Shown: positions 4,305 to 39,832 of the stretch, in pieces
Layout of the letters: each line of letters begins with the position of its first letter
How positions within the stretch are numbered: position 1 is the stretch's first letter
NCBI GenBank assembly: GCA_963971285.1
Contig: OZ020246.1
Coordinates: forward strand, 8,415,217-8,479,216
DNA length: 64,000 bases
Reading direction: 5' to 3'
Source of the DNA: Astropecten irregularis
Lineage: Eukaryota; Echinodermata; Asteroidea; Paxillosida; Astropectinidae
Translations under genes and position numbers: made by a program
The notes under the pieces: model-generated
What the model saw: only the letters and a program-made list of their open reading frames with translations
Told to the model about the DNA's origin: nothing
The model's database searches: none

Positions 4305-4867
4305 TTAGAATTGGAGTTCACATTGGAAAATGGTGACTGAGATGCCAATCCCATGGGGCTGCAGATAAAAAATGAAAAAAATAAACTTATATTACTCAAA
4401 GAAAATTAAATGTGTAAATAATTGCAGTGTGCGGTAAAGAAAGAAGAAAAGGAAACATTCTATTTTAAATTAGGCAAGTCTATGACAAATACTCTTCCTT
4501 TGATAAAGAATTTTAGGGGGGGGTTACCACAAAGACACATTCCACAAATCATGCAGGAGGTGTACTAGAATCTTGGGACATACGTTTAAGTAATAATTTT
4601 AGAAGGTAGCATGTGGGTAACTTATGGATAGAAAATCCCAAAAACAAATCCAGAACCTCACATGGTCTGCCATAAACCTGGATGTATTACATTTTTGTGT
4701 CACAATATTAATGGCAAGCCTCAAATCATATTCATCCAACTAGAAATGAATGGAGTGAGGACTAGTCAGCAAATTCCTGTCAGCAGGACATGTACCTTGA
4801 GGTAGACCTTATCAAGCCACCATTGTGCAGCATCAGCTTCAGGGTGTATCTCCTTGATTCCAGCCAT
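4305..4867 (-). other. Candidate two-exon reading frame in D1 (possible gene fragment)
   Basis: On the minus strand an ATG at 4867 opens a 24-codon block (MAGIKEIHPEADAAQ..., ending VYLK) that stops exactly at a GT (last exon base 4796; AAG|GTACATG). A second block starts after a TTTATCTGCAG acceptor at 4358 and reads PHGIGISVTIFQCELQF to a stop at 4305. The two join in phase 0. The D2 copy keeps the same start, donor, acceptor, phase and stop despite many substitutions, which is the main argument for a real coding history. The first block resembles the last two exons of the candidate gene at 31.5-36.1 kb, where the equivalent position is GTG rather than ATG. It may be a pseudogene remnant; no family is recognised. 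Confidence 0.3.
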
Positions 4868-5062
4868 CCCATGAAATTATAGAAATGAAAAATATTTCAA
4901 CATTAATAAAACACAAGCCTTCACAAGCCTTAATACAAAACGACTAAAGCCTTTAACAGTTCAATAAAAAAATGTGTGGTAGAGGGGAGGTGATCCTAAA
5001 GTATTTTTTGTAGACCCTATTCACACTAATGAGGTGAACAGGTAGTATATCACTCTACTTAC

Positions 5063-5194: not shown

Positions 5195-6440
5195 CTAAAA
5201 CATAAAATGATGGCAGGATCAGATACATGTAATAATTACTGCCATGCTCAAAGAGTAATGGAAGGATGTTCAGAGGATCAACACTCATCTGAAAAAATGA
5301 CGTGGTCAGATGCTCTAAAATACTTAATGGCCCCTCTAAGGAGCTGCAGGTGATACAGCTTGTTGCTGGGGACTTGCTGAAATCAACGGTACCAAGCAAG
5401 CCAGATGAAGATCGCTTTAAAGATGGAAGAGAAAGGGAAGGCGAATCCCCGAGCAATAAACCAAAACCCTGATGAGCCTTAAGACAACAGGTTGTGGGGA
5501 AGAACAGGGCTGATTCTGTGAAGATAGAATTTTGTAATCATTCTCTCTGACAGAAAGGAAGAATGTTTAAACAAAGATAGAATCTAACAGATCCACCATG
5601 TTCTCTGTAATGAGGCAGACCCTCTGCCAAGAAAGATTAGCCAGATCCACAATTCTTGGATGTGATGGAATCACCGTTAGGTAGCAAAGATCTGCCAAAT
5701 CCACATCCAGCCAGCAAAGATCTGCCTAATCCACGATGGTTGCTGTGATGGATTCACCTTCAGCCAGCAAAGATTTGCCACATCCACGATGCTTGCTGTG
5801 ATGGAATCACCGTTAGGTAGCAAAGATCTGCCAGATCCACAAATTGCTTGAAATAATGGGTCTCAACCTCGGCCAGTAAATATCAGCAAGGTCCATGATA
5901 TTTGCCGTGATGGACTCACCCTCAGGCAGCTAAGATCTGCCAAATCCATGATGCTTGCTGTGATGGACTCACCATTAGGTAGCAAAGATCAGCCACATCC
6001 AAGGTGCTTGCCATTATGGGCCTCACCCCCAGGCAGCAAAAGATCTGCCAGATCCACAATTGCTTGAAATAATGGGCCTCATCCTCAGCCAGCAAAGATA
6101 TGCAAAATCAACAATGCTTGCAAAGATGGACTCACCATCAGGTACCAAAGATCTGCCAGATCCACGATGCTTGCCATTATGGGCCTCACCCACAGCTACC
6201 AAAGATCAGCAATATCCATGATGCTTGCCATGATGGACTCACCCTCAGCTAGCAAAGATCTGCCAGATCCTCAACGCTTGCCGTGATGGATTCACCCTCA
6301 TCCAGCAAAAATCTGCCTAATCCACAATGCTTGTGCTGTTATGGATTCACCCTAAGCCAGCAAAGATCTGCCAAATCCATGATGCTTGCCGTAATGGACT
6401 GACCCTAAGCTAGCAAAGATCTGCCACATCCATGATGCTT

Positions 6441-6797
6441 TTATTTATTTATTTCTTGTTTACCCTGGGTTTACCTGCTCAGTGAAACACACACTGTTTT
6501 CCAGAGGTTCCCAGCAATTACAATATGAATTAGGATGGTGCTACACGTGACCGAGAAGCAGGCTTTCATGGGCGCCCTTTGGCAGCCAGCCACATCAACC
6601 CATATATGATCATGAAGTACAGCTTAAGATCGAAAGTGTTTGGTTTTTGTGGAGGGAGGAAAACCAGAGAACAACCCTCGAAGCATAGGAGAGAACCAAA
6701 CGCACAACTCCACTCACATAATGACAAAAGCCGGGATCGAACCCAGGCCACATTGGTGAGAGGCGAGTGCCTACCACACTTTGCCACCAACGCCCCC
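6441..6797 (-). mobile_element. tRNA-derived SINE inserted in satellite array 2
   Basis: Read on the minus strand, it begins with a tRNA-like head (GTTGGTGGCAAAGTG as A-box region, GGTTCGATCCC as B box near 6,735). A body follows with the TTTTCCTCCCTCCACAAAAA block, and it ends in an AAATAAATAAATAAA tail at 6,441. Satellite sequence resumes on both sides (GATGCTT on the left, TGTGATGGACTCACC on the right), so it jumped into an existing unit. The second, plus-strand copy at 59,657-60,004 shares head, body and the GGGTTGATGTGGCTGGC block. Confidence 0.88.
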
Positions 6798-7807
6798 TGT
6801 GATGGACTCACCATTAGGTAGCAAAGATTAGCCACATCCAGCAAAAGATCTGCCAGATCCACAATTGCTTGCCATGATGGGCTCACTCTCAGCCAGCAAA
6901 GATCTGCCTAATCCATGATGCTCACTATGATGGACTCACCATTAAGTAGCAAAGTTCTGCCAGATCCACAATTGCTTGAAATAATGTGCCTCACCCTCAG
7001 CCAGCAAAGGTCTGCCAAATCCATGATGCTTGCAAAACTGGACTCACCATCAGCTACCAAAGATCTGCAAGATCCATGATGCTTGCCATTATGGGCTTCA
7101 TCCTCAGCTAGCAAAGATCTGCAAGATCCATAATGCTTGCCATTATGGGCCTCACCCTCAGCCAGGAAAGATCTGCCATATCCATGATGCTTGTCATGAT
7201 GGACTCACCCTCAGCTAGCAAAGATCTGCCAGATCCATGATGCTTGCCATTATGGACCTCACCCTCAGCTAGCAAAGATCAGCCAGATCCATGATGCTTG
7301 CCGAAACGGATTCACCCTCAGCCAGCAAAGATCAGCCACATCGATGGTGCTTGCTATTTGGGCCTCATCCTCAGCCAGCAAAGATCTGCCAGATCCATGA
7401 TGCTTGCCATTATGGGCCTCACCCTTAGCCAGCAAAGATCTGCCAGATCCATGATGCTTGCCATTATGGGCCTCACCCTCAGCTAGCAAAGATCAGCCAG
7501 ATCCATGATGCTTGCCGAAACGGATTCACCCTAAGCCAACAAAGATCAGCCACATCGATCGTGCTTGCTATTTGGGCCTCACCCTCAGCCAGCAAAGATC
7601 TGCAAAATCCACGATGCTTGCAAAAATGGACTCACCATCAGGTACCAAAGATCTGTAACATCCACGATGCTTGCCATTATGGGCCTTACCCTAAGCCAGC
7701 AAAGATCTGCCAGATCCACGATGCTTGCCTTGATGGATTCACCATCAGCCAGCAAAGATCTGCAAGATCCATAATGCTTGCCATTATGGGCCTCACCCTC
7801 AGCCAGC

Positions 7808-10800
7808 AAAGATCTGCCAGATCCATGATGCTTGCCATGATGGACTCACCCTCAATGAGGAAAGATCTGCAAGATCCATGATGCTTGCCATGATGGACTC
7901 ACCCTCGGGTAGCAAAGATCTGCCAGATCCATGACGCTTGCCAAAACGGATTCACCCTCAGCCAGGAAAGATCAGCCACATCGATGGTGCTTGCCATTTG
8001 GGCCTCACCCTCAGGCAGCAAAGATCTGCCAGATCCACGATGCTTGCCAAGATGAACTCACCATCAGCTACCAAAGATCAGCAAGATCCGAGATGCTTGG
8101 CATGATGGACTCACCCTAAGCTAGCAAAGATCAGCCAGATCCATAATGCTTGCCGTAATGGATTCACCCTCAGGCAGCTAAGATCTGCCAAATCCACGAT
8201 GCTTGCTGTGATGGACTCACCATTAGGTAGCAAAGATCAGCCACATCCATGGTGCTTGCCAACATGGGCCTCACCCTCAGCCAGCAAGAGATCTGCCAGT
8301 TCCACAATGCTTGCTGTGATGGACTCACGATTTTAGGTAGCAAAGATCTGCCAGATCCATGATGCTTGCCATTATGGGCCTCACCCTCATCAGCTAGCAA
8401 AGATCTGCAACATCCGCGATGCTTGCCATTATGTGCCTCACCTTAAGCAAGCAAAGATATTCCAAACCCACGATGATTGCCATTATGGGCCTCACCCTAA
8501 GCCAGCAAAGATCTGGAAAATCAACGATGCTAATACCATTATGGGCCTCACCCTCAGCTAGCAAATATCTGCAAGACCCACGATGCTTGCCATTATGGGC
8601 TTCACCCTCTGCATGCTAGCAAAGATCTGCCAGACCCAAGATGCTTGCTATTATGGGCCTCACCCTCAGCTAGCAAAGATCTGCCAGATCCACGATGCTT
8701 GCCGTGATGGACTCGCCATTAGGTAGGAAAGATCAGCAAAATCCATGATGCTTGCCATGATGAATTCACCCTCAGCCAGCAAAGATCTGCCAAATCCACG
8801 ATGCTTGCTGTTATGGACTCACCATTAAGTAGCAAAGATATGCCAAATCCACGATGCTTGCAGAGATGGACTCACCATTAGGTAGCAAAGATCTGCCAGA
8901 TCATGATGATTGCCGTTATGGGCCTCACCCTCATCAGCTAGCAAAGATCTGCAACATCCGTGATGCTTGCCATTATGTGCCTCACCCTCAGCTAGCAAAG
9001 ATATACCAGACCAACGATGCTTGCCATAATGGGCCTCACCCTCAGCCAGCAAAGATCTGCAAAATCAACGATGCTAATACCATTATGGGCCTAACCCTCT
9101 GCTAGCAAAGATCTGCCAGACCCAAGTTGCTTGCCATTATGGGCCTCACCCTCAGCTAGCAAAGATCTGCCAGATCCACGATGCTTGCCTTGATGGATTC
9201 ACCCTCAGCCAGCAAAGATCTGCAAGATCCATGATGCTTGCAATGATGGGCCTCACCCCTGGCCAGCAAAGATCTGCCAGATCCATGATGCTTGCCATGA
9301 TGGACTCACCCTCAATGAGGAAAGATCTGCAAGATCCATGATGCTTGCCATGATGGACTCACCCTCGGGTAGCAAAGATCTGCCAGATCCATGATGCTTG
9401 CCAAAACGGATTCACCCTCAGCCAGGAAAGATCAGCCACATCGATGGTGCTTGCCATTTGGGCCTCACCCTCAGGCAGCAAAGATCTGCCAGATCCACGA
9501 TGCTTGCCAAGATGAACTCACCATCAGCTACCAAAGATCAGCAAGATCCGAGATGCTTGGCATGATGGACTCACCCTAAGCTAGCAAAGATCAGCCAGAT
9601 CCATAATGCTTGCCGTAATGGATTCACCCTCAGGCAGCTAAGATCTGCCAAATCCACGATGCTTGCTGTGATGGACTCACCATTAGGTAGCAAAGATCAG
9701 CCACATCCATGGTGCTTGCCAACATGGGCCTCACCCTCAGCCAGCAAGAGATCTGCCAGTTCCACAATGCTTGCTGTGATGGACTCACGATTTTAGGTAG
9801 CAAAGATCTGCCAGATCCATGATGCTTGCCATTATGGGCCTCACCCTCATCAGCTAGCAAAGATCTGCAACATCCGCGATGCTTGCCATTATGTGCCTCA
9901 CCTTCAGCAAGCAAAGATATTCCAAACCCACGATGATTGCCATTATGGGCCTCACCCTAAGCCAGCAAAGATCTGGAAAATCAACGATGCTAATACCATT
10001 ATGGGCCTCACCCTCTGCTAGCAAAGATCTGCCAGACCCAAGATGCTTGCTATTATGGGCCTCACCCTCAGCTAGCAAATATCTGCAAGACCCACGATGC
10101 TTGCCATTATGGGCTTCACCCTCTGCATGCTAGCAAAGATCTGCCAGACCCAAGATGCTTGCTATTATGGGCCTCACCCTCAGCTAGCAAAGATCTGCCA
10201 GATCCATGATGCTTGCCGTTATGGACTCGCCATTAGGTAGGAAAGATCAGCAAAATCCATGATGCTTGCCATGATGAATTCACCCTCAGCCAGCAAAGAT
10301 CTGCCAAATCCACGATGCTTGCTGTTATGGACTCACCATTAAGTAGCAAAGATATGCCAAATCCACGATGCTTGCAGAGATGGACTCACCATTAGGTAGC
10401 AAAGATCTGCCAGATCATGATGATTGCCGTTATGGGCCTCACCCTCATCAGCTAGCAAAGATCTGCAACATCCGTGATGCTTGCCATTATGTGCCTCACC
10501 CTCAGCTAGCAAAGATATACCAGACCAACGATGCTTGCCATAATGGGCCTCACCCTCAGCCAGCAAAGATCTGCAAAATCAACGATGCTAATACCATTAT
10601 GGGCCTAACCCTCTGCTAGCAAAGATCTGCCAGACCCAAGTTGCTTGCCATTATGGGCCTCACCCTCAGCTAGCAAAGATCTGCCAGATCCACGATGCTT
10701 GCCTTGATGGATTCACCCTCAGCCAGCAAAGATCTGCAAGATCCATGATGCTTGCAATGATGGGCCTCACCCCTGGCCAGCAAAGATCTGCCAGATCCAT

Positions 10801-12193
10801 GATGCTTGCCATGATGGACTCACCCTCAATGAGGAAAGATCTGCAAGATCCATGATGCTTGCCATGATGGACTCACCCTCGGGTAGCAAAGATCTGCCAG
10901 ATCCATGATGCTTGCCAAAACGGATTCACCCTCAGCCAGGAAAGATCAGCCACATCGATGGTGCTTGCCATTTGGGCCTCACCCTCAGGCAGCAAAGATC
11001 TGCCAGATCCACGATGCTTGCCAAGATGAACTCACCATCAGCTACCAAAGATCAGCAAGATCCGAGATGCTTGGCATGATGGACTCACCCTAAGCTAGCA
11101 AAGATCAGCCAGATCCATAATGCTTGCCGTAATGGATTCACCCTCAGGCAGCTAAGATCTGCCAAATCCACGATGCTTGCTGTGATGGACTCACCATTAG
11201 GTAGCAAAGATCAGCCACATCCATGGTGCTTGCCAACATGGGCCTCACCCTCAGCCAGCAAGAGATCTGCCAGTTCCACAATGCTTGCTGTGATGGACTC
11301 ACGATTTTAGGTAGCAAAGATCTGCCAGATCCATGATGCTTGCCATTATGGGCCTCACCCTCATCAGCTAGCAAAGATCTGCAACATCCGCGATGCTTGC
11401 CATTATGTGCCTCACCTTCAGCAAGCAAAGATATTCCAAACCCACGATGATTGCCATTATGGGCCTCACCCTAAGCCAGCAAAGATCTGGAAAATCAACG
11501 ATGCTAATACCATTATGGGCCTCACCCTCTGCTAGCAAAGATCTGCCAGACCCAAGATGCTTGCTATTATGGGCCTCACCCTCAGCTAGCAAATATCTGC
11601 AAGACCCACGATGCTTGCCATTATGGGCTTCACCCTCTGCATGCTAGCAAAGATCTGCCAGACCCAAGATGCTTGCTATTATGGGCCTCACCCTCAGCTA
11701 GCAAAGATCTGCCAGATCCATGATGCTTGCCGTTATGGACTCGCCATTAGGTAGGAAAGATCAGCAAAATCCATGATGCTTGCCATGATGAATTCACCCT
11801 CAGCCAGCAAAGATCTGCCAAATCCACGATGCTTGCTGTTATGGACTCACCATTAAGTAGCAAAGATATGCCAAATCCACGATGCTTGCAGAGATGGACT
11901 CACCATTAGGTAGCAAAGATCTGCCAGATCATGATGATTGCCGTTATGGGCCTCACCCTCATCAGCTAGCAAAGATCTGCAACATCCGTGATGCTTGCCA
12001 TTATGTGCCTCACCCTCAGCTAGCAAAGATATACCAGACCAACGATGCTTGCCATAATGGGCCTCACCCTCAGCCAGCAAAGATCTGCAAAATCAACGAT
12101 GCTAATACCATTATGGGCCTAACCCTCTGCTAGCAAAGATCTGCCAGACCCAAGTTGCTTGCCATTATGGGCCTCACCCTCAGCTAGCAAAGA
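7808..12193. repeat. 1,514-bp higher-order repeat within array 2 (about 2.9 copies)
   Basis: The same ordered series of about 28 different 54-bp units recurs with a period of 1,514 bp: landmark CCAAAACGGATTCACCCTC occurs near 9,402 and 10,916, and CCAAGATGAACTCACCATC near 9,507 and 11,021. The two right-hand copies show no difference in the stretches I compared. The leftmost copy is 54 bp (one unit) shorter and has a few substitutions, for example CCTTAAGCAAGC near 8,441 against CCTTCAGCAAGC later. After about 12,193 the order breaks. Confidence 0.92.
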
Positions 12194-12964
12194 TCTGCAA
12201 GACCCACGATGCTTGCCATTATGGGCCTCACCCTCAGCTAGCAAAGATCTGCAAGACCCACGATGCTTGCCATTATGGGCCTCATCCTCAGCTAGGAAAG
12301 ATCTACCAGACCCACGAAGCTTGCCATTATGGGCCTTACCCTCAGATAGCACAAATCTGCAAGATCCGCAATGCTTGCCATTATGGGCCTCATCCTCAGC
12401 TAGCAAAGATCTAACAGATCCATGATGCTTGCCATGATGGGCCTCACCCTCACCAAGCAAAGATCTGCAAGATCTACGATGCATGCCATTATGGGCCTCA
12501 CCCTCAGCTAGAAAAAATTTGCCAGATCCATGCTGCTTCCTCTTATGGGCCTCACCCTCAGCCAGCAAAGATCTACTAGACCCAAGATGCTTGCCATTAT
12601 GGGCCTCACCCTCAGATAGCAAAAATCTGCAAGATCCGCAATGCTTGCCATTATGGGCCTCATCCTCAGCTAGCAAAGATCTACCAGATCCATGATGCTT
12701 GCCATGATTGGCCTCACCCTCACCAAGCAAAGATCTGCAAGATCTACGATGCATGCCATTATGGGCCTTACCCTCAGCTAGCAAAAATCTGCCAGATCCA
12801 TGCTGCTTCCTATTATGGGCTTCACCCTCAGCCAGCAAAGATCTGTCAAATCCACGATGCTTAATACTGTGATGGACTCACCATTAGGCAGCAAAGGTCA
12901 GCCACATCCATGATGCTTGCTGTAATGGGCCTCACCCTCAGCAAGCAAAAATTAGCCAGATCCA

Positions 12965-14805
12965 TTGCCTGTAGGGCTAACCCTCAGTTAGTGGAGATAA
13001 GCCAGATCCATGATGCTTTCCATGACCGACCCATTGAAGGTGACCTAGCACATACAGGTACATGCTGCACTGTTGATTAGGCCATAAAGTTGGGCATCCC
13101 TTGCTATTGTGGTTTCCAACAGTTGCTGGAAAGAATAGGTAAGACATGTCAAACCCTAATGCCACATTCCTCCAACTGCAAATGGGCAATCCTGAAGGAA
13201 GCAGAGCTACATGTAGCTTGAGTCATGCTTGGCAACTCAGTCCTAGACCTGACCTCAGCAAGGTACGTTTTCTTTGTCTTGTTTACTCTTTACCAGAGTA
13301 TTGTCATTACTAACTGGGTGACAGAAAGTTTCCCTCAATACCCAGTTCATGAAACCGCCTGGTTTTGCAGCTGACTGTGACTGCAGTGTTGGATGTGCTG
13401 CCCCTAAGGACTGAAGCCACTGTACAGGGATGGTTACTACTCCAGTCCGATAGCAAATTAACAAACATTTACGGAACTTGATTTGATACCAAAGAAGCAT
13501 GCATGTCAAACGCATTGTGGTTAGAACAGAGGTATTAACTGCTAAGTAAAGTCTACATGTAAGTATTAAAGTTACCTGTGGGCATAGGAGATTTAAACAA
13601 AAAAATAATGCAGTTTCACTTACAGTAAAATATCAGTTGAGGTAAATTCACAGTAGCCTAGATACAGATCTTACTTCAAAAGAGTATCCTGTGTTGTGCT
13701 TTGAGCCATCAGAATGATCAGGTAACTACCAGAGGTTAGGGGTCCCAGTAGCCTGTAGCATCCAAAAGTGAGAGTCTTCAGAAGTCCAAGGATGTTTAGA
13801 ATTGGTGCTCACATTGGCAGATGGTGACTGAGATGCCAATCCATGCAGATGGCTGCAGATAAGAATGAAGAAAATAACCATGGCATATTACTCAAAGAAA
13901 ATGAAATGTGTAAATATTGGCAGTGTGAGCTAAAGAAAAAAGAAAAAGAAAGATTGTAGCTAAAATTTGAAAAGTTTGCGCCTAATTTAGTCTTCCTTTG
14001 ATAAGGAATTTAAGGGGGGTATTACCACAAAAGTCACATTCCAGAAGTCATTTGGAGGTATCTTGGTACACATTAATAGTTTTAGGAGGCACCATATGTG
14101 TAACTTTTATGGAAAGAAAATTCCAAAAAAATCCAGAGCCTCATATGGATAACCATAAACCTGGATGTATTACCTTTCCGTGTAAAAATCATGGCAAGCC
14201 TCAAATCATATTCATCCAACTAGAAATTAATGGAGAAACTAGTCAACAAATTCCTGTCAGCAGGACATGTACCTTGAAGTAGCCATTATCAAGCCATCGT
14301 TGTTCTGCATCAGCTTCTCGGTGTATCTTCTTGATTCCAGCCATCGCATGAAATGACAGAAATGTAAAATATTTCAACATTAATAAAACACAAGCCTTAC
14401 AAAGCAAGTATTAAAGCCTTTAATGTGCAGAAGAAGGGAGGTGATCCTTAAGTAATGTTTGTAGACCCTACCCACACTAATAAGGTGAACAGGTAGTATA
14501 TATATCACTCTACTTACCAGTAGAAGGAATACAATATCTGCAATGGTGGGAATATATGAAGCTATCATATCTCTACAAAGGCCATAGGACATGACATGTC
14601 CAAAACTACTTCCCCCAAGCTGTCTAAGATTCCACAGATGATTGAAATGTAGAAAATACAAGGATGGCAGGATCAGATACACTCGTAGTTGCTGCCATGC
14701 TCAACAAGTACTTGAAGGATGTTGAGAAGATCAACATCATCTGAATCAGGTGCTCTAAAGCGCTTTATGGCCCCTTTAAGCGCTTTATGGCTGCACGAGA
14801 TAATG
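12965..14805. repeat. Non-satellite segment D2, second copy of D1
   Basis: Starts with the same GTGGAGATAAGCCAGATCC edge as D1 and runs through the same landmarks: TACCAGAGTATTGTCATTAC near 13,290, TGACTGAGATGCCAATCC near 13,826, CAGCAGGACATGTACCTTGA near 14,259 and CACTCTACTTACCAGTAG near 14,507. It is a little shorter than D1 through deletions. Flanked by satellite arrays 2 and 3. Confidence 0.85.
13796..14344 (-). other. Candidate two-exon reading frame in D2 (paralogue of 4305-4867)
   Basis: The minus-strand ATG at 14344 opens 24 codons (MAGIKKIHREADAEQ..., ending GYFK) to a donor at 14273 (AAG|GTACATG). The second block follows a TTATCTGCAG acceptor at 13852 and reads PSAWIGISVTICQCEHQF to a stop at 13796. 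Compared with D1 the frame, both splice sites and the stop are kept, but about a third of the residues of the first block differ, so purifying selection is not evident by eye. No family is recognised. Confidence 0.3.
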
Positions 14806-21639: not shown

Positions 21640-21915
21640 TAGAGTAGACTCAGGAAAATAGTAAAAAAATAAGGAGCCACCATCTGTGTAACTTTTCGGA
21701 AACATCAACAACCACACACATGTCACTACCATTGCAAGGCTCAAATCATATTAATCTGGCGTGAGGACTAGTCAACAAATTCCTTTCAGCGGGACATGTA
21801 CTTTAACTTGAGGTAGACACTATCAAGCCATCATTGTCCACATTCTGGATGCATCTCCTTCATTCCATCCATCCCATGAAATGATAGAAATATGTAAAAT
21901 ATTTCAACATTAATG
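21640..21915. repeat. Decayed third copy of the D1/D2 segment (D3)
   Basis: Matches the stretch of D1 around 4,610-4,910: GGCTCAAATCATATTAATC, GGACTAGTCAACAAATTCCT, GGGACATGTACTTTAACTTG and CATCCCATGAAATGATAGAAAT. The minus-strand ATG block corresponding to the one in D1 and D2 is interrupted by an in-frame stop and its donor is changed, so this copy is dead. Confidence 0.75.
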
Positions 21916-26270: not shown

Positions 26271-26339
26271 ACAAATATGCTCATCGCAATCATAAACCGG
26301 CCAGTCTACCGCGGCTGGCGGTTTCACCCCGCAAGCGGT

Positions 26340-29190
26340 CAGAACAAATGCAAAAGAAAGTGCAAAATGAAAAATGTGATATTTGGCACATGGAATGTGC
26401 GCACCCTCATGGACAGAAAAGCCTCATCGAAGCCCGAGAGAAGAACTGCCCTCATAGCGAGAGAATTAGTTCGCTACAGAGTTGACATTGCTGCCCTCAG
26501 CAAGACCAGACTCGCCGAAGAAGGATCTATAGCAGAACCGAAAGGAGGCTACACCTTCTTCTGGAGGGGCAATTGGCAAAGGACGAAGACAGAATCCACG
26601 GGGTAGGCCTGGCCACCAAGACCTTGCTCTGTAAGCAGCAAGCAGACCTGTGAGTGAGCAGCTGATGAAACTTCGTTTCCCCCTCAACCCCTCTCGACAT
26701 GTCACAGTCATCAGCGCATACGCACCCACTCTCACCAGCAGCGATGAAGTAAAGGAGGCCTTCTACGATAAACTGAAAGCGCTCGTGATGGATGTTCCCC
26801 AAGCGACAAACTCTTCATCCTCGGGGATTTCAACGCAAGGGTCGGGGCTGACAGTGGCAACTGGAGAGATTTGCTGGGACCTCACGGCACAGGAAAGCTT
26901 AACTCCAATGGCCTCATGCTGCTGAGTTTCTGTGCGAAAACGACATGACCATCACCAACACTATATTTCGCCAGGCGGACAAATTCAAGACAACCTGGAT
27001 GCACCCCAGATCCAAACAGTGGCAAATGATTGACTTTGCCATCTGCCGTAGACGGGACATCCGTGACGTCAGAATCAGTGTGTTGGACCGATCACCGCCT
27101 TGTCAGAACTATCCTGTCACTGCACATCACCCAGACACATCGCAAGACTCCAAAAGTCTGCAGGCCAACTTTTGTCGTCGCACGACCCATGCAGCCAGAA
27201 CAGCGTGATGCCTTTGCGAATGACCTGGATGACAGGCTGCCCAAGGACCTCTGAGGAGTGTGTAAAACATGCTACAACGATCGTTGTGGCGACGTATACA
27301 TGAGTTTCTGGTCTCAATCTGTACTTGCGTGTTTAGGAATATCTTGCTATGATTTGGTGCAGGCAACCTTAAGGAATATTCAGTCAGAATCATTCATAAC
27401 TTGCTCAACGTGACATGTCACATTTCTTACCGCAAAATCTGCATTGAAGCAGACCGAAACCCACGGTACCGTGAGCCTGACTTTACTGCACCAAATACAC
27501 ACATTGTACGTACGACATGTAGGCTTGCACTTCCTGCCCGATTACGAATTCGCGACTGTGTACTTCACTGGTGCACTTCATATGCTTTGAATGGTGTGGC
27601 GCAGATACTAATCGTGGAATTTTCTGGATGCAGCATGGGCCAGGCCATGTGGTGTGCATGATGCATCATACGTGATATGTTTACGTCTTCTTTCGTGCGA
27701 TCGTCGCTTTCGGGAAGCTGTTCACAATATTTTTTAAATCAAGTTTGCAAAAAGTTTGTTTCTACTTGGCAAAATGAACCAAAAAATGACTGAAATTCAA
27801 GTATGTATTATAGAGTTTACACTTTTGGGTTGTTTATTCATTGGGCAAATGTCAGTGACTCTACTTTTTAAAATATTGATTTCGTTATACCGTTTTTGAA
27901 ATGTTTAAAACTGGATGGCTAGATGTAAAGCGGGAGCCCGGAAATCCCGGAAATTTTAATGCACAGCACTAGTTGCCCGACCAAGTTTGTGAACCTGATA
28001 CGCCACGACGACATGACCGGGCAAGTGCTTTCGGGCAGAGAGGCATCGGAGCCATTCAACATCACCAATGGTGTTAAGCAAGGTTGTGTGTTAGCTCCCA
28101 CCCTCTTCAACCTATTCTTCACCTGCCTGCTCAACTATGCTGTCAGAGACCTTGAGCACGGGGTGTACCTGCGTTATAGACTGGGCGGTTCTCTGTTTGA
28201 CCTGCAGCAACTGACAGCGAAGACGAAGACCATAAGAAGGATCGTCCTTGAGGCACTGTTCGCTGATGACTGTGCGCTCATGACCCGCAAGGAGCTCAAC
28301 CTCCAAGTCGTCACTGACAAATTCACAGAAGCCTCTCGCATTTTCGGTCTCACCATCAGTCTCGGCAAGACCAAGGTCCTGTTCCAAACTGCACCTGCCT
28401 CCGCTGTCAATCCTCCCTCCATCTCCATCGAGGGCACCCAGCTGAGGACAGTGGACGCGACTTCAAATACCTAGGTAGTGTCATCAGCAGCGACAGAAGC
28501 CTGGACAAGGAGATCAACGCCAGGATCTGTAAGGCCAGTCAAGCGCTGGGCCGTCTGAGGACACGCGTCCTGAACCAGCATAACATCAGGTGATCCACTA
28601 AGCTCAAGGTGTACAGGGCTGTTGTCATCACCAGCCTTCTCTACGGATGTGAGACATGGACCTTGTAAAGAAAGCACCTGAAGCAGCTCGAGCGGTTCCA
28701 CATGCAAAGCCTGCGGTCAATCCTGAGCATCAAGTGGCAAGTCCTTGACATGGCAGAGTCAACAAGCATCGAAGCCATGATCCTCGAGTGTTGACTTCAT
28801 TCGGTGGGACATGTCATCAGGATGAGTGACGATAGGCTGCCAAAACAACTCATGTATGACGAGCTTGCTTCTGGAAGACGTCGGCAAGGCAGGCCTAACA
28901 TGCGATAAAAAGACTGCCTTCAGCCAGCCTGAAATATGCCAGTATCAAATCCAAGGAGCTTGAGCTATGTTCACAGGACAGGATTGAGTGGCCAGCCCTC
29001 ACCAGACAAGCCAAAGTCACATTCGAGGAGAGGTTGCAGAGGCCCGGGAGAGACGGTCTCTTCCCCTGTCCCAAGTGTTCCCCCGCCTGCAAGTCGAGGA
29101 TTGGACTCACCAGCCACCTTCGAGCCCACGGCAGACGGGAGACAAGCTGATGAAGCAGTCATCGTTGATTTCGATGGACAACCAAGAGAA
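26340..29190 (+). mobile_element. Broken non-LTR retrotransposon (LINE, endonuclease + reverse transcriptase)
   Basis: The plus strand shows the N-terminal apurinic-type endonuclease (FGTWNVRTLMD near 26,380, DIAALSKTRLAEEG near 26,490, VISAYAPT near 26,710, LGDFNARVG-like near 26,820, TTWMHPRSKQWQMIDF near 26,990). The reverse transcriptase follows (GVKQGCVLAPTLFNLFF near 28,075, ALFADDCALM near 28,255, YLGSVISSDRSLDKEINARI near 28,470, LLYGCETWTL near 28,640). A C-terminal C2H2 finger-like CPKC...H...H motif lies near 29,070-29,135. This order fits the RTE/jockey-like LINEs common in marine invertebrates. Frameshifts and stops interrupt the frame several times, and the first third of the RT is missing, replaced by 27,255-27,970. 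Not active. Confidence 0.88.
27255..27970. mobile_element. Insertion inside the LINE, related to the hAT-like element at 53.5 kb
   Basis: This 0.7-kb block breaks the LINE between its endonuclease and its RT. It shares sequence in inverted orientation with 53,540-53,950: TTTCTACTTGGCAAAATG here against CATTTTGCCAAGTAGAAA there, and the ACGTCTTCTT and CACGTGAT-like words. Its right end, GCACAGCACTA at 27,961, resembles the GCCCAGCACTA terminus of that element. The matching left terminus was not found, so the copy is truncated or rearranged. Confidence 0.5.
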
Positions 29191-31535: not shown

Positions 31536-34500
31536 CTTAAAATAAACCACTTGCCAGGCATTAAAAGTCAACATCCAGTTCCAGTCAAGGCTGCTTGACA
31601 CGTCTCCCCTGATTCCAGCCACCGACTAGAATGATAGAAATGAACCATGCATCACAATCAATAAATATTCACTGTTCTCTTCCAAGGTTTTTTTGTAGAT
31701 AAATATACTGGGGTTGTCGTTGATAATGGAATGGATTATGGGACCCCTTAAAGGTAATATCATACTTTGGTTTTTATCAAAGAAATACAAATTCATGGGC
31801 AAAAATATCAACACAGATACAGTAACAGTCATCTGTGAACATTTCAGTCCCATACGATGCCCAATTTTTGAGAAAACAGTGAAAAACAGCCACAGTATTT
31901 CTTAAGTCTTTTCTCTTTTATTTTTGATCTTTTAAAAGATCAAGAAGATTTTTGGTCGTTGTTTTACTCATTTCTGGATAAATACACCATTTCAAGCAGA
32001 ACATTTTTAACGATCTTCATCTTCATACCCTGTAAGTTCTCCGTAAATCTGTGAACATTTCTGTTTTGGTTTCTTTCCAAAGTATGATACTACCTTTAAA
32101 TGAATCTATTTGCTGTTTGGTGAATTTCAGAAACCTCGTTCATTTTTAGACATTTTTCTTTCCAAAATGACTCATTTAATCTGATATTTTTAATAATAAT
32201 AATATAGATTTACAAAGCACACATATAATCCACCCTGCTGGATACGTGTTCAAGATGCAGCAAACGTGAAATATGGAAGTATTGAACAAAATAAGTAGTC
32301 ACTGAAAACTTGTGTCACTGATTGGTTTTGAGTTGTGAAATCTTTCAATTTAAATTGTGAATTGTCACACTAATACATGCTTCCACTTGTTTAAGGTCAT
32401 AAGAATTAATTGCTGAAAGTGTCGTGTAACAATAAAGGGCATTGCCTTGGATGTTATCATTGTATTCATCAGTAAGAAATATAGGGCATTTACGAAACGG
32501 ATGCTCAGGCTCAGTCTCAGGCTCTGGCTCCATTTTGTGAATCCAAATAACGGGTATCAAAATTGAGGCTTTTGGCTGCGGGTCTGAAGTAGATTCTCTA
32601 GTTTGAAAAGGAAAACAGAGCTTCAGCTTCAATGAAAATCCACAACCTATATTTTCAGCATATGGATGCCAGAGCTGGAGCCTGAGCCTTAGCCTCCATT
32701 TTGTAAACGCCCATTGATTAATTGATAATAAAGCAATGAATGAATTTTCTGTCTAGACTAGAAACAAATGAGAGACAACAAATCATTACTTGACCAGGAT
32801 AGATACCTCAAGATAAACACCAGGCCATGTAACAGTCAACATCCAGTTCCAGAGTCTAGGTTGCTTGTTACATCTCCCTGATTCCCGCTGTCTCCTGTAA
32901 TGCAACATTCACTCATCATTCAGTTTGTGAAGCAAATCCACAAGATTGTCTTCAAAGTACATACATGTATCAATGAATACAAGAATAAGCTACAGTGATG
33001 GTCATGTGTCATCACCGTTTTAAATGGTTTTGTTTTATACAAATTTTACGTTTCAATAAAAGAAGTGTTTTTTTAAAGATTAAAAGAAAGTACAGTTTAA
33101 AGGTAGTATCATACTTTGGTAAGAAACTAGAACAGAAATGTTCACAGATTTACGTATAAGTTACAGGGTATGAAGATGGTGGCGGTAGAAACATTTACCG
33201 TTAAAATATTTCCGCCTGAAATGATGTATCTATCCAGAAATTAGTAAAACAACGACCAAAAATCTTTTTGATCTTTTAAAAGATCAAAAATAAAAGAGAA
33301 AAGACTTAAGAAATAGGCCTACTGTGGCTGTTTTTCACTGTTTTCTCAAAAATTGGGCACCGTATGGGACTAAAGTTTTCACAGATGACTGTTAAGTATC
33401 TGTCTTGATATTTTTGCCCATGAATCTGTATTTCTTTGATAAAAACCAAAGTATGATATTACCTTTAATAAAGTTTGTCAATCGTGTTTTAACCTTTGAT
33501 TGTGCAACAAAAGGCAAGAAATACACAAGTACATTTAGCCCATAGGCAAGTAATAATCCACAGACAAAATCTTGAGTTCCAGAGAGTTAGTTCACACATG
33601 GAGGAAGGAAGAGACTGAAACAGAGGGTGAGTGTACCTGTATAGTGCCTTGCTAATCTTGTTTGCTTCTATCTTGACTTGATCGCTGCGGCAAACATTCC
33701 AATCCTCTTCGCATCTTGTGAATGCAACCACCGAAGCTAACAGGCGACACCCAGGGTCTTGAGAATGTTCACAGCTGAAAGGGAATGGTTAACCTACCTC
33801 AGTAAACATGCAGTCTTGTAACCTGGCCTCTACTGCATTTGAACTTGAATGTTGTGGCAAACATGCTAATCCTCCTTTCATCTTGTGAAAGCATCCAGCG
33901 AGGCTAACAGGAGACATCCGGCATCTTGAGCATATTCACAACTGAAGGGGAATGGTTATTAAACATTCCTTGGTGAACATGCAGTCTTTAACCCCAGCCT
34001 CTACATGAAATGCATGATGATTATTATTGGTTCTTGCATCTGCCAGGCGGGTCTATTGAAGAATTACAAATTATGCTACAGAAAACTACACACAAGTGAG
34101 GTGTTGTATACTTGTGAGGACTAGACAGCATGCAATATTTTACTTCTATTTTACCTCCACTTTGCTATGCCAGAGTCTAAAGGGATACGATCATGTAGGT
34201 CCCCTAAGTCTACATATATTTAAAGTGTGAAGTTTTATGTGAAATGTTTCCTGGTCCTGAAATATTTTTACAACTTTTCATGAATGACTATCAATCATTT
34301 GATGATAAAGTCCATACTGGACCCTTCTACATTTTGTGGGAGAATCATTTTTCGAAATAAACAGTAAATGCCCATCTAGAATTTATCTATCAAATGTAAA
34401 GGAGTGTGATAGGCAATTAAAAGGTTAGACCGGTAATTTACCTTTTTGAGAGTGAACAATTCCAAGACCACTTGCTTCTCCTTGGCATGATAGAACTGTT

Positions 34501-36120
34501 GTTGTGGAATGTATGCCATTTCCCGTCATCTGGTAAAATAAAATAAAACTTGTTTATAACTTGAAGTGTCAAAATATAATCCCAAGCTACATTAACAGTG
34601 ACCATTTCAAATGATTTAAGTCTTATTTGTAACCCTTTCAGTCCCTTGCCTTTCTTTTAGAGTAGACTGAGGTGCAGAAACGAACAGTCATAGGATGACA
34701 GTATTTCTTTCTGGTACTTTTACAGGTCAAATTCAAAACCCCTTCCTTGTGACTTATACACGATGTGTTGTTATCAGCAAATGTGTGTACATGAATTACT
34801 TCTTATTTACTATTCATCCATAGTCAAGTTTTCTTTTAGTCCATTTGTTCCCTTGCACCAGTAGCATTCGCCCCACACATAGGGCTGTATTGATGGCTCT
34901 CTTTTAAAATCTGTCTCTCTCTGGTCGCCATTCACAGCCCTACTTCAAGGCATGATTTAAACGAGCGAGATCTAAAGAGTAGAATTGGGACAAGCTTTCA
35001 ATTTCAATATCTTCTCATCTTCTGGACAATTTCACTTAAACTTTCTTTCTTATTCCTCAGACTTTGATTTTTCACACCAGCCCCGTAAAGTTTTCCAAAA
35101 CTCTACAATTTCCCGTGTATTTCACCGTCAAAATTCCATGTTGTGGAATGATGACGACAGTGAACTTCGCCATATTGAAAAATTACGAGTACCAGCGAAG
35201 CAACGCTTCGTGCGTCTCATTTCAGGGCACCCAAAGCGACATGCACATTATGTATGTTAATTTTGTGACATAGCCTACATATGAAGTGATCGCCTGTCAG
35301 GTGACTAAACTTCTGACACATGAAGCGTTGCCCCAATAATACTCATCATTTTGCTCTTTGGATCTCCACGTTTAAGTCATCGCATTGAATTAATGGCTGA
35401 GAATAGCGACCAGATTTGAAAAGAGAGCCAAGCCCTAAGGCTATGTGTGGGGCTACATAGTACATTCATCAGACACGTCGATCTCAGACCTGGGCCGGGG
35501 GTTAGTTGCGATGATCGTAACCCTAGGTCTAACATGGGGACTGGGACCTAAGGTCCCAGTCCCCATGTTACATGGCATGTAGGTCCCGGTCCCCATGTCA
35601 GACTAGGCTAGGGTTACGATCATCGCAACTAGGCCGGGGGTATGATCCTGTAGCTGGGTTGTACTTCCATATATGTTTGTGCACAAATACATACATTCAT
35701 GAAAACATGGGGGTGATGTACCCCCGTACCCACCCCCCCCCCCCCCCCCCCGCATGCCCCGCCCCCCACAATGTCAATGTTTCCCATTCAATTGATAGTG
35801 ATACTCACAACCCAAATTGACGTCAATTACAACTGTGTCCTTTCTGTACTGACTGTACTGTCTGTTACACTGACACGTACTTGTAAAATGAGCAGCTCTT
35901 ATTTCAAAATGTTTTCGCCGACTTCGCGTATCCAACCGTAGGCCTACATAACATGTGTGCCAAGTACAAGAATGGAATTTAAAAATGGCGCCCAGCCACG
36001 GCATACGGCATGCATAATGGAATGCCTAATGGGCTAGGCTAGTGCAGAAATTTTGGGTGATTTGTTTCGAGGAAATAAGATTGCCTCACCGTATAATAAA
36101 CAGTCCAGGATGGCCTCCAT
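31536..36120 (-). CDS. Candidate multi-exon gene, cysteine-rich product of unknown family
   Basis: Five minus-strand blocks have GT-AG borders and join in frame: 36,120-36,090 (ATG; MEAILDCLLY, donor CG|GTGAGG, exit phase 1), 34,529-34,442 (acceptor ATTTTACCAG; DGKWHTFHNNSSIMPRRSKW then SWNCSLSK; exit phase 2), 33,774-33,637 (acceptor CCCTTTCAG; CEHSQDPGCRLLASVVAFTR, CEEDWNVC..., ending KALY; exit phase 2), 32,894-32,807 (RQRESGRCNKQPRLWNWMLT..., ending GVYLE; phase 0) and 31,625-31,536 (SVAGIRGDVSSSLDWNWMLT..., ending VVYFK; phase 0). The phases fit at every junction. The last two blocks are a duplicated pair. The product has about eight cysteines and NNSS glycosylation sites but no visible signal peptide. 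The 3' end and any 5' exons are not located. TTAA MITEs lie in two introns. A distant likeness to GDNF-receptor/GAS1 cysteine spacing is speculative. Confidence 0.45.
31748..32099 (+). mobile_element. TTAA MITE family A, copy 1 (full length)
   Basis: Reference copy. TTAA, then AGGTAATATCATACTTTGGT at the left and ACCAAAGTATGATACTACCT-type sequence (here with one change) before TTAA at the right, about 350 bp in all. Inside lies the conserved palindromic core GATCTTTTAAAAGATC. Non-coding. Sits in an intron of the candidate gene. TTAA targets are used by piggyBac and Kolobok; AGG-type termini fit Kolobok better, from memory. Confidence 0.9.
33097..33468 (-). mobile_element. TTAA MITE family A, copy 2 (full length, inverted)
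   Basis: Starts TTAAAGGTAGTATCATACTT and ends ATGATATTACCTTTAA. Lies in the intron between the third and fourth blocks of the candidate gene. Confidence 0.9.
33850..33941 (-). pseudogene. Dead duplicate of the third exon of the candidate gene
   Basis: A tandem copy of the 33,637-33,774 exon region, including the CATTCCCCTTCAG acceptor. It reads CEYAQDAGCLLLASLDAFTR and then hits TGA where the active copy has a Cys codon, with a further TAG where the copy has Trp. Flanking intron sequence is duplicated too (AACATGCAGTCTT before both), so the duplication spans about 165 bp. Confidence 0.55.
34870..35453. mobile_element. Non-autonomous DNA transposon with ~60-bp terminal inverted repeats
   Basis: Left arm begins GCCCCACACATAGGGCTG and contains GGCTCTCTTTTAAAATCTG and CTGGTCGCCATTCACAGCC. 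The right arm (35,394-35,453) is its diverged complement, ending CTATGTGTGGGGC. The 584-bp element has a unique, non-coding middle. No clear target duplication (TAGCATTC left, TACATAGT right). Confidence 0.7.
35503..35631. repeat. Three-armed palindrome
   Basis: A left arm (35,503-35,550: TAGTTGCGATGATCGTAACC, then ACATGGGGACTGGGACCTA) is followed at once by a perfect complement of its last 19 bases (35,531-35,569 forms a 19-bp hairpin with a 1-nt loop). A second, longer complement follows at 35,580-35,631. The middle arm could pair with only one of its neighbours at a time. Confidence 0.9.
35733..35751. repeat. Poly-C tract (19 C)
   Basis: An unbroken run of 19 C followed by GCATGCCCCGCCCCCC. 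Length in an assembly is unreliable for such runs. Confidence 0.9.
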
Positions 36121-36844: not shown

Positions 36845-37495
36845 CTTTTACAGGACGAAAATAAACTACGTCAGAACTTGAGATTGAGGATGACGCTTGT
36901 GATTATATAACTAGACCAGAGAGTGGTCAAATTACGGAGAGCTAAAAGCCATTGTGCATTAAAGGTAATATCATACTTTGGTTTTTATCAAAGAAATACA
37001 GATTCATGGGCAAAAATATCAAAACAGATACAGTAACAGTAACAGTCATCTGTGAAAATTTCAGTGCCGGTGCCCAATGTTTGAGAAAACAGTGAAACCG
37101 CCACAGTATTTCTTAGTCTTTGCTCTTTAATTTTTTTATCTTTTAAAAGATCAAAAAGATTTTCGGTCGTTGTTTTACTAATTTTTTGATAAATTCACCA
37201 TTTTAACGGTATGTTTCTACGACCATCATCTTCATACCCTGTAAGTTATACGTAAATCTGTGCACATTTCTGTTTTGGTTTCTTACCAAAGTATGATACT
37301 ATAAGCTTGGTCACGAAAAAACAGTAGGACCTTCAAATAATTATAATTATGGCCTTTTACAGGACGAAAATCAGCTATACGTCAGAACATGGAGGTAGGA
37401 AAACCTCCATTGTCAGAAGAGATTGAGGATGACGCTTGTGATTATATAACTCGAGAGTGATCGGAATTGGAGAGAAGCCATGCATTCAACTTGGT
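36845..37495. repeat. Repeat family B, two copies separated by a TTAA MITE
   Basis: Two related blocks, 36,845-36,958 and 37,303-37,495, share TTTTACAGGACGAAAAT, GATTGAGGATGACGCTTGTG and ATTATATAACT. The second is bordered by AAGCTTGGTCACGAAAA on its left and by ACTTGGTCACGAAAA on its right, which suggests a tandem unit of about 190 bp. A third copy lies inverted at 63,545-63,753. Confidence 0.75.
36959..37300 (+). mobile_element. TTAA MITE family A, copy 3
   Basis: Inserted in repeat B: the left flank is CCATTGTGCA then TTAA, and the right end runs GTATGATACTATAAGCTTGG, so the right TTAA is eroded. The empty site CCATTGTGCATTAAGCTTGG exists as the complement near 63,560. Confidence 0.88.
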
Positions 37496-37639: not shown

Positions 37640-37923
37640 AGGGAGATTTGACTGTTTTTCTCCCTGTGGAAATTTGAGCTCAATCGGACATCTGAAACAC
37701 GAGAAAATAGCAGAAAACCGACTCGATTTTTCTTATAGAACATAAAGAATGGTTTCGATCAAAACTATTTTCAGTCGTTATATTTTACTAATTCTGGATA
37801 AATACACCATTTCAGGTGGAAATATTTTAGCAGTATGTTATAGCACCATCTTCATATCCTGAGAGTTATACGTGAATTTGTGAACATTTCTGTTTGGGTA
37901 TGTTACCAATCCAGTACTGCCCT
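37640..37923 (+). mobile_element. Diverged relative of MITE A (partial)
   Basis: Only the right half resembles family A (CAGTCGTTATATTTTACTAA, AATACACCATTTCAGG, and a changed terminus CCAGTACTGCCCTTTAA). The left part, GAAATTTGAGCTCAATCGGA, is shared with the interior of copy 4, marking a subfamily. Confidence 0.6.
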
Positions 37924-38389
37924 TTAAAGGTAATATCATACTTTGGTTTTTGTCAAAGCAATGCAGATTCATGGACAAAAATATCAAGGGAAATACAGTA
38001 ACAGTCATCTGTGAAAATTTCAGTCCCATACGGTGCCCACCTTTTGGGAAAACAGTGAAAAACAGCCACAGTATTTCTTAAGTCTTTTCTCTTTTATTTT
38101 TGATCTTTTAAAAGATGCATGAAATAATAAACCTGTGAAAATTTGAGCTCAATCGGATATCTGAATCACAAGAAAATAGCGGAAACCCGACTCCATGTTT
38201 CTTATAAAACATAAAGAATGGTTTCGATCTTACCCCGAGATCAAAACTATTTTCGGTCGTTGTTTTACAAATTTCTGGATAAAATAATACATCATTTCTA
38301 CCAGCACCATCTTCATACGCTGAAAGTTATAAGTGAATCTGTGAAGATTTCTATTTGGGTATGTTACTAATCCTGTACTGTACCTTTAA
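37924..38389 (+). mobile_element. TTAA MITE family A, copy 4 (with extra interior)
   Basis: Left end as in the consensus; the right end is the subfamily type (TCCTGTACTGTACCTTTAA). About 110 bp of additional interior (ATGCATGAAATAATAAACC ... GAGCTCAATCGGATATCTGA) is shared with the preceding partial copy, so this may be a fusion of two adjacent elements. Confidence 0.8.
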
Positions 38390-39347: not shown

Positions 39348-39832
39348 TAATATTTCAGAAAAATTGTGATTTCTGTCTGGTCAGGCGAGATGTTCTCTAT
39401 TTCCGTTTTGCTGCTCATTTTATGCACAGTTTTATTAAAGACCTCCAGGATGAAGCAGGCTTAATTTATATTGCTTTTTACGACGTGTGTTTTTAAATCA
39501 TATTCAGTATGCCAAGGCCTATACCTAGCGGGAATCGGTGTGAAACAGACATTTTTCTCTACAACAAATCATATCACGGCACCAACGGGAAAGACTGGCC
39601 ATCGTTGTATTTTTATGAGGTAGGTATACCAGCGTGTGGGAGTACCAGGTGCAGTGACTGCACGTTGGCCTATCACGCGTGTGTGTGTCGTCAGTTTCCG
39701 AATTTGTTGGTTTCGTGAAAGATGACTTGCATTTTCATCCATTACATCTACCGACTTTGTTTCATTTCGCCGTGGCACAGAGCTGACACAGAACGTCTTT
39801 TGCTCATCGAGAAAAAGAAGGAGAAGGAAACG

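What the first reader, a model, noticed from the sequence alone, without database searches (positions are those of the whole stretch)
31536..36120. Unrecognised cysteine-rich gene with duplicated exons
Five minus-strand blocks have splice-like borders whose phases (1, 2, 2, 0, 0) fit at every junction. The joined reading has a regular cysteine pattern and glycosylation sites. Both the third and the fourth exon have duplicates beside them; the third's duplicate is dead and the fourth's is still open. Pieces of the same unit recur between the satellite blocks 10-30 kb away. I recognise no family; a GDNF-receptor/GAS1-like spacing (C-x6-C, then DPGCR...C) is a guess.
Basis: partly seen in the sequence, partly recalled or inferred. 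Interest (0 to 1): 0.7.

Follow-up and report, generated by a model that had tools for sequence, protein, structure and literature searches.

The report
Diverged copy of structured RNA family
What looked like a cysteine-rich protein gene is most likely a diverged copy of a family of noncoding RNA genes in an echinoderm-like genome, whose conserved exon folds into hairpins with splice-site-like loops.

Summary
The blocks exist as described and the splice-like borders and phases fit, but they are not a protein gene. The hairpin recurs at 30 other places on the window's contig C9 and on at least nine other contigs of a 476-Mb genome, probably an echinoderm's. In 12 C9 paralogues a ~370-nt block from a 3' to a 5' splice site plus ~50 nt is conserved (30-nt bins 0.84-0.99) while flanks lie mostly at 0.59-0.74. 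Changes in the cysteine frame fit neutrality (5 synonymous, 16 not; 9 copies). The stems are kept by compensatory changes (67 double-sided cells against 21 in shuffles). A second folded module (~370 nt, 'module C') lies within 3.4 kb downstream on the same strand in 32 of 40 copies. No Rfam family reached its threshold. Best reading: a multicopy, spliced, structured noncoding RNA gene family. Each hairpin loop carries a 5' splice site, branch-like motif and 3' splice site within 22-35 nt, possibly an intron mimic for nuclear retention (inferred). The window copy is probably decayed: its outer donor is missing and no module C was found.

The parts
33747..33834 (-). 10-bp stem GCATGTTTAC/GTGAACATTC: 9 of 10 pair by my reading (one C-T mismatch, one G.T); outer stem CCAGG/CCTGG
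   Evidence: nhmmer E 3.9e-26 with a profile built from family copies, this one included; alignment A2; the minimum-energy fold of 33735-33845 contains most of this stem
33914..34005 (-). Stem GCATGTTCAC/GTGAATATGC: 10 of 10 with one G.T, by my reading
   Evidence: nhmmer E 3.9e-21, profile includes this copy; fold
33551..34039 (-). Remains of the conserved hairpin exon: acceptor cctggcag|atgcaagaacc at 34040/34039, then both hairpins and the tail ...TGTCTGTGGATTAT. The GTAAG donor kept at the matching place in 11 of 12 C9 paralogues is missing here
   Evidence: read by eye against paralogues
33590..33648 (-). Degenerate remnant of the second hairpin type (paralogues: GGCATGTTCACAC..GTGTGAACATG).
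   Evidence: by eye, against the alignment
32807..32894 (-).
   Evidence: nhmmer with a 5-sequence profile that includes this copy, E 6.3e-22; hits in 15 other loci (L013, L015, L016, L018, L019, L022, L023, L026, L027, L028, L043, L044, L045, L064, L065), best E per locus 3e-18 to 4e-4; L016 and L064 were also seeds, and L027/L028 are near-identical neighbours
31536..31625 (-).
   Evidence: nhmmer E 7.8e-21, profile includes this copy
21844..21880 (-). Exon-4-like fragment between satellite blocks
   Evidence: weak profile hit, E-value not shown in the cut output
14324..14352 (-). Exon-4-like fragment between satellite blocks
   Evidence: weak profile hit; blastn of 31610-31665 to 14332-14387, 73% over 56 nt, E 4e-4
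4833..4875 (-). Exon-4-like fragment between satellite blocks
   Evidence: weak profile hit, E 0.04; blastn of 31607-31665 to 4852-4910, 73% over 59 nt, E 1.6e-4
5708..12965 (.). Largest block of the 53/54-bp satellite (others at 1-3345, 14856-18858, 19345-20141, 22813-22970)
   Evidence: TRF; the 61 genome hits listed for a 35-nt core with up to 2 mismatches all lie at C9:8411005-8434434
34442..34529 (-).
36090..36120 (-).

Best explanation
This is a diverged, probably decayed copy of a multicopy family of spliced, structured noncoding RNA genes. The family's hairpin exon is flanked by real-looking splice sites and contains one or more hairpins: outer stem, 9-13-bp inner stem, often a small 5-bp hairpin. 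The hairpin loop carries AAG|GTA...TAAC...TTTCAG, that is, a 5' splice site, branch-like motif and 3' splice site within 22-35 nt. Tandem repeats and a ~370-nt folded module C often accompany it. Shown by computation: recurrence, exon-limited conservation, absence of coding constraint, compensatory stems, co-linearity with module C. Inferred: that it is transcribed and spliced at the outer sites, and that the loops act as an intron mimic too short to splice, which holds U1/U2AF-type factors and keeps the RNA in the nucleus or on chromatin, with module C as a folded domain.
For: Recurrence: 30 other C9 places and copies on C8, C11, C20, C30, C12, C24, C25, C16 and C1. Selection on the exon: in 12 C9 paralogues 11 of the 13 30-nt bins of the block are at 0.90-0.99 and two at 0.84 and 0.89, against mostly 0.59-0.74 outside. 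Pairwise block identity averages 93.7%; collinear flanking matches, where detectable, average about 75% (20 of 66 pairs upstream, 46 of 66 downstream, the latter partly tandem repeats). Donor GTAAG in 11 of 12. Not coding. Structure: on 30 copies 95.7% of stem cells pair against 81.9% in shuffles, 67 double-sided cells against 21.4, 0 of 500 shuffles reach either, slid controls at most 45.2%. Without selecting on stems, 44 of 57 loop-motif matches in the held sequence have a stem of 8 bp or more (G.T allowed) against 0 of 5 in reversed sequence. Module C: 88 consensus pairs, 13 with double-sided changes, 98.5% of cells paired, 30 double-sided cells against 12.3 (0 of 500); 32 of 40 copies have a listed hairpin upstream on the same strand within 3.4 kb, none on the other strand within 4 kb.
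Against: No RNA-seq or other species is available here, so transcription and splicing are unproven. The window copy lacks the exon donor, one stem pair is broken, and module C was found neither in the window nor in 9.5 kb beyond it (only weak hits, best E 0.084, inside the satellite on the other strand), a failed prediction. In the C9 paralogues 5 of 12 first hairpins carry one broken stem pair. 28 of the 30 rows were found by a script that demanded perfect stems, which inflates the percentage paired. Close copies alone gave almost no covariation (1 of 14 pairs). The count of further pair types was not above shuffles, and many changes are shared by descent, so independent events are few. Gene conversion could contribute to block similarity. 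The nuclear-retention role is inference from sequence only; no intron-free copy supports splicing of the loops.
Confidence: 0.66

Rival explanations
1. A non-autonomous mobile element (retroposon-like) whose conserved exon and folded module are recognition signals for a copying enzyme; conservation reflects recent spread rather than host function.
For: Dispersed copies on ten contigs including C9; one subgroup of module C, 88-89% identical to the C25 query, is spread over C8, C11, C20, C24 and C30; folded module at the downstream side; reverse-transcriptase remnants in the window (27959-28474).
Against: Flanks of many C9 copies are themselves homologous but far more diverged than the exon, which uniform decay of dead copies would not give. 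Fixed order and orientation with module C over up to 3.4 kb, and kept splice borders. Terminal repeats and target-site duplications were not looked for.
Confidence: 0.2
2. A real cysteine-rich secreted protein gene, perhaps with other copies as pseudogenes.
For: Open joined reading in the window; some open frames in C1 exons; 10 of 12 C9 copies end the Cys frame at the same in-frame TAA.
Against: Codon positions vary 9/16/16 of 38 with stops and lost cysteines; 5 synonymous and 16 non-synonymous distinct changes in 9 copies, near the neutral expectation of 20-27% synonymous; non-triplet indels in the conserved block; the exon-4 duplicates are frame-shifted; no Pfam match and no PDB match better than E 1.
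Confidence: 0.05
3. A cluster of microRNA precursors.
For: Hairpins of about 70-100 nt, in tandem at several loci.
Against: In microRNAs the arms are fixed and the loop is free (recall); here the loop motif is the steadier part and the arms change with compensation. No Rfam microRNA reaches its threshold.
Confidence: 0.04
4. The 22-35-nt loops are true, spliced ultra-short introns in a noncoding transcript.
For: GT, a TAA/TTA branch-like motif, pyrimidines and AG recur while length varies 22-35 nt (those signals are part of the search motif, but also stand out in alignments 26 and 66).
Against: Shorter than animal introns I know of (recall); no intron-free copy of the one form searched; splice sites lie inside a closed stem.
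Confidence: 0.05

Closest known systems
Long noncoding RNAs with tandem repeats plus conserved structured elements (Xist, roX; recalled)
   Same: Spliced-looking exons, no coding constraint, tandem repeats at the locus, stem-loop domains kept by compensatory change
   Different: Tens of paralogous loci on at least ten contigs; loops that carry a complete set of splice signals; no sequence relation was tested
U1-dependent chromatin retention of lncRNAs (recalled; PMC11489095, PMC12354759 and PMC12363940 seen only in a search listing with the start of the abstract)
   Same: Unproductive 5' splice-site motifs in a noncoding RNA could bind U1
   Different: Here the 5' site is displayed in a stem-loop together with branch-like and 3' splice motifs; binding untested
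Ultra-short introns (PMC4463651, PMC5435141, PMC5014332; listing and start of abstract only)
   Same: GT-AG with branch-like motif at about 25 nt, the length the listed abstract gives for some ciliates
   Different: Animal genome, inside a hairpin, splicing unproven
GDNF receptor / GAS1 (Pfam PF02351)
   Same: Superficial C-x6-C spacing in one frame
   Different: No profile match; no coding constraint

Membership tests
GDNF receptor / GAS1 domain | Match to Pfam PF02351 | tested here: not met
   No hit for the window reading, its exon-3 part, or the four readings; genome-wide the only hit at E up to 1 is C30:5907703-5907933
GDNF receptor / GAS1 domain | Conserved cysteines under protein-level selection | tested here: not met
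   Cys lost or stops in 5 of 12 paralogues; positions 9/16/16; 5 of 21 distinct changes synonymous
Long noncoding RNA gene | No coding constraint in a conserved exon | tested here: met
   (Cys frame tested; other frames only by indels and stops seen in alignment)
Long noncoding RNA gene | Transcribed | not testable with these tools
   no expression data
Long noncoding RNA gene | Splice sites kept at exon ends | tested here: met
   GTAAG donor in 11 of 12 C9 paralogues by reading; acceptor AG visible in alignment. The window copy itself has lost the donor
Structured RNA (any Rfam family) | Match above Rfam gathering score | tested here: not met
   Window: none. 14 loci at permissive thresholds: only sub-threshold hits, to microRNA, snoRNA, bacterial sRNA and lncRNA-region models
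Structured RNA | Compensatory base changes beyond controls | tested here: met
   with the selection caveat; the weaker first pass is
MicroRNA precursor | Conserved arm sequence with free loop | tested here: not met
MicroRNA precursor | Dicer products | not testable with these tools
   no small-RNA data
Mobile element | Sharp ends with target-site duplications or terminal repeats | not tested
   copies were fetched only in short stretches
Spliceosomal ultra-short intron | Removed from RNA | tested here: inconclusive
   No intron-free genomic copy of the C30-type joined sequence: the single hit, with 3 mismatches, lies across an intact loop. This does not exclude splicing, and the C9-type junction was not searched

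The most novel reading that the evidence does not exclude
An undescribed family of at least about 40 loci encoding structured noncoding RNAs in an echinoderm, partly sorted by chromosome (C9, C16 and C1 groups stand apart; one group spans C8, C11, C20, C24 and C30), with tandem repeats that differ between groups of loci, a folded ~370-nt domain, and hairpins that present a complete but unspliceable (or ultra-short) intron in their loops, used to tether the RNA to chromatin.
Probability: 0.2. Interest if true: 0.85.

Novelty: new variant of a known kind. Interest (0 to 1): 0.55.

Why it matters
If the family is transcribed, it is a large RNA gene family that no Rfam model in use here recognises at threshold, whose hairpin loops make a direct test of whether splice signals in a noncoding RNA serve to hold it in the nucleus. 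It also warns that splice-like borders with fitting phases can come from conserved RNA structure rather than coding exons.

Tried and rejected
Protein reading: Pfam searches of the joined window product and related readings gave nothing; the PDB search of the joined window product gave only E 1.1 and 1.4; codon tests rejected coding. GDNF-receptor guess. Known RNA families; some folded inverted repeats scored above chance against plant microRNA models (MIR6140 on L057, E 4e-9, 58.7 bits against a threshold of 140; MIR447 on L055, E 6e-4), taken as generic long hairpins. Intron-free copies of the loop: none found. LINE 5'-monomer idea: no ORF over 88 aa in the 5 kb downstream of the C8 array. 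Module C downstream of the window copy: not found in the window or in C9:8402000-8411500. First RNAalifold passes on close copies gave little covariation (1 of 14 pairs; 2 of 9); the strong signal came only with diverged copies. Exon-4 module: no consistent frame and no convincing common fold by eye, left open. Paper searches listed no description of this family in the held library; only listings were seen, no paper was opened.

Counting notes: the '30 other C9 places' and '14 places at 1.54-2.94 Mb' were counted by hand from the 47 rows (40 of 47 candidates scored), merging neighbouring rows, so they are lower bounds; loci were held for 12 of the 14. One search dropped L017, L018 and L044 (length change or end motif not matched), leaving 9 of 12. 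In one search positions were typed, one per hairpin group rather than every hit, so distances are upper bounds; the two C16 hairpin positions were approximate, from L058 and L059. One search covers the 40 scored of 45 module C candidates.
Full report
Setting. The window is C9:8415217-8479216 of a 476-Mb, 168-contig genome. Contig C168 carries a COX1 gene with 10 in-frame TGA codons; it reads without a stop under NCBI codes 4, 5, 9 and 13, and code 9 (AAA = Asn, used by echinoderms and some flatworms) gives the usual conserved residues, so the organism is probably an echinoderm (the comparison of residues is from recall).

Observation. The five minus-strand blocks have the stated borders and phases and join into 145 open codons. 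The exon-3 duplicate is dead, as said. For exons 1 and 2, genome matches other than the locus itself have E of about 0.4 or worse.

What recurs. A search with the exon-3 region finds 30 other places on C9, counted by hand with neighbouring rows merged, and copies on C30, C20, C11 and C8. Those off C9 match only ~85 nt (window 33749-33833), which straddle the supposed exon-3 acceptor. That stretch is a hairpin: GCATGTTCAC ... GTGAACATGC, outer stem CCGGGGT/ACCCCGG, loop GAGGTAGGTTAACCATTCTCTTTCAG. A motif search with up to 3 mismatches lists 33 loops on C8, C12, C20, C24, C25 and C30, with 0 for the reversed control. C1 and C16 carry further tandem relatives. The full form on C30 and elsewhere adds a 5-bp hairpin, GCTCA-AAT-TGAGC, before the 3' arm.

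Selection. I aligned the 12 held of 14 C9 loci at 1.54-2.94 Mb. From an acceptor (TTCAACAG|ATGCAG) through two hairpins to a donor (ATTATCAGA|GTAAGT) and about 50 nt beyond, the 13 bins of 30 nt average 0.84-0.99 identity to the majority letter, 11 of them 0.90 or more, the best on the hairpins. Outside, bins lie at 0.59-0.74, with one at 0.81 and a last short bin at 0.50. Block identity between pairs averages 93.7% (range 84.9-97.4). Collinear matches of at least 40 nt in the flanks exist in 20 of 66 pairs upstream and 46 of 66 downstream, at about 75% on average; this over-estimates flank identity, because only alignable pieces count, and many downstream matches are tandem repeats. So the flanks are homologous where visible and much more diverged. 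GTAAG at the donor is kept in 11 of 12 (by reading).

Not protein. L018 and L019 have stops inside, L018, L022, L024 and L045 lose cysteines, L017 and L044 change length, and 10 of 12 end in an in-frame TAA just before the second loop. A recheck on the 9 copies it matched at equal length gives 3, 9 and 8 variable columns; of 21 distinct changes 5 are synonymous (24%; neutral expectation 20-27%). The block has indels not divisible by three. Pfam is silent and the PDB search gave nothing better than E 1.1.

RNA structure. Close copies alone give little covariation: 1 of 14 and 2 of 9 pairs with double-sided change. With 30 diverged copies, the inner stem and the small hairpin keep 95.7% of cells paired (shuffles 81.9, sd 1.1), with 67 double-sided cells (21.4, sd 3.5), 0 of 500 shuffles as high; 8 of 15 pairs have double-sided change (6.6 in shuffles, 14 of 500 as high); slid controls reach at most 45.2% paired. 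The number of further pair types was not above shuffles (499 of 500 as high). 28 of the 30 rows were found by a script that required a perfect stem, so the paired percentage is inflated. Without that demand, 44 of 57 loop-motif matches in all held sequence have a stem of 8 bp or more, G.T allowed, against 0 of 5 on reversed sequence; some of the 57 are clearly unrelated sites. The stem comes in different but matched versions: CATGTTCACAC/GTGTGAACATG (C9), GGTTCACAC/GTGTGAACC (C1), ACATGTTCAC/GTGAACATGT (C8, C11, C12, C20, C24, C30), TACATGTCACC/GGTGACATGTA, TGCATGTTCAC/GTGAACATGCA (C16); the small hairpin is GCTCA/TGAGC, ACTCA/TGAGT or ACCCA/TGGGT. In the 12 C9 copies, without selection, the first hairpin's 10-bp stem is complete in 7 and has one broken pair in 5.

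The loop. GT to AG lengths run from 22 to 35 nt, 23 the commonest, among the 44 stem-bearing loops. The splice-like signals were part of the search motif there; that they are steady is seen independently in the alignments. A search for the C30-type sequence with the loop removed gave one hit, which lies across an intact loop.

Module C. A ~370-nt GC-rich module was found in 40 scored places. 32 of 40 have a listed hairpin 0.43-3.36 kb upstream on the same strand and none has one on the other strand within 4 kb; the remaining 8 (seven on C16, one on C25) had no hairpin among the positions I entered. RNAalifold on 7 copies gives 88 pairs, 13 with double-sided change; 98.5% of cells pair (shuffles 94.2), 30 double-sided cells (12.3), 0 of 500 as high for either; 13 pairs against 8.6 (3 of 500); further pair types not above shuffles; slid controls at most 46.3%. 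As the structure was derived from the same alignment, slid controls favour it. Against the C25 query, copies on C8, C11, C20, C24 and C30 are 88-89% identical, C16 mostly 81-86% (three at 70-71%), C9 73-76%: sorting by chromosome is partial, and no tree was built.

Tandem repeats. Groups of loci differ in their repeats: 23-bp and related 45-bp (L017, L024, L061, L064), 39/40-bp (L018, L019, L020, L023, L063), 25-bp on C16 (L058, L059), and the 53/54-bp satellite of the window, whose 61 listed hits all lie at C9:8411005-8434434. On C9 the arrays seen lie downstream of the hairpin exon, on C16 upstream.

The window copy. It keeps an acceptor and both hairpins, but the second hairpin type is a remnant, the outer donor is missing, and module C was found neither in the window nor in C9:8402000-8411500, where the best hits (E 0.084) fall inside the satellite on the other strand. 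I take it for a diverged and probably decayed member. Two interspersed repeats (31746-32100 and 33097-33470) have landed inside it.

Mechanism. Shown: a conserved, non-coding, structured exon in many loci, tied in order and strand to a second folded module. Inferred: transcription, splicing at the outer sites, and a role of the loops. The loops offer every core splice signal in a span too short for a usual animal intron (recall), inside a stem. The simplest use is to bind U1- or U2AF-type factors without being spliced and so hold the RNA in the nucleus or on chromatin. I give this role about 0.3 within the RNA-gene reading.

Literature. Six answered searches of the held library listed nothing describing such a family; only listings were seen.

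Noticed in passing
window 39722-41215 (+): Open frame of 497 aa, rhodopsin-type 7TM receptor (Pfam 7tm_1, E 7e-29).
   Followed up: partly
window 46077-46943 (-): Open frame of 288 aa matching the Major Facilitator Superfamily (Pfam MFS_1, E 1e-20).
   Followed up: partly
window 27959-28474 (+): Reverse transcriptase domain of a retrotransposon remnant (Pfam RVT_1, E 2e-10); a nearby frame at 26277-26606 had no Pfam hit.
   Followed up: partly
window 31746-32100, 33097-33470, 36957-37300, 37922-38190, 43723-44085, 47420-47698, 48707-49078, 59069-59440, 60573-60933, 61578-61941: A ~360-bp interspersed repeat in both orientations (TTAAAGGTAGTATCATACTTTGG ...), with dozens of listed copies elsewhere in the genome, mostly 91-93% identical over about 370 nt to the copy at 33.1-33.5 kb (one search scores only the best candidates).
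   Followed up: no
window 35521-35610: Very strong near-perfect inverted repeat, -54 kcal/mol for 90 nt.
   Followed up: no
L057 (C8:36472001-36477000) and L049 (C30): About 1.1-kb tandem repeats downstream of module C shared by C8 and C30, unidentified.
   Followed up: partly
L075 (C9:8402000-8411500), 923-3013: A different tandem array, period 162 bp, 12.8 copies, just below the window.
   Followed up: no
C1:22.457-22.475 Mb (L027, L028, L070): Tandem array with roughly 2-kb steps holding the hairpin exon, an exon-4-type exon and a short exon, all with clean splice-type borders by eye; best place to look for transcripts.
   Followed up: partly
L075 9088-9476 and the window satellite (+): The 54-bp satellite unit aligns weakly (E 0.08-2.9, four units) to positions 59-129 of the module C profile; could be chance or a distant origin of the satellite.
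   Followed up: no
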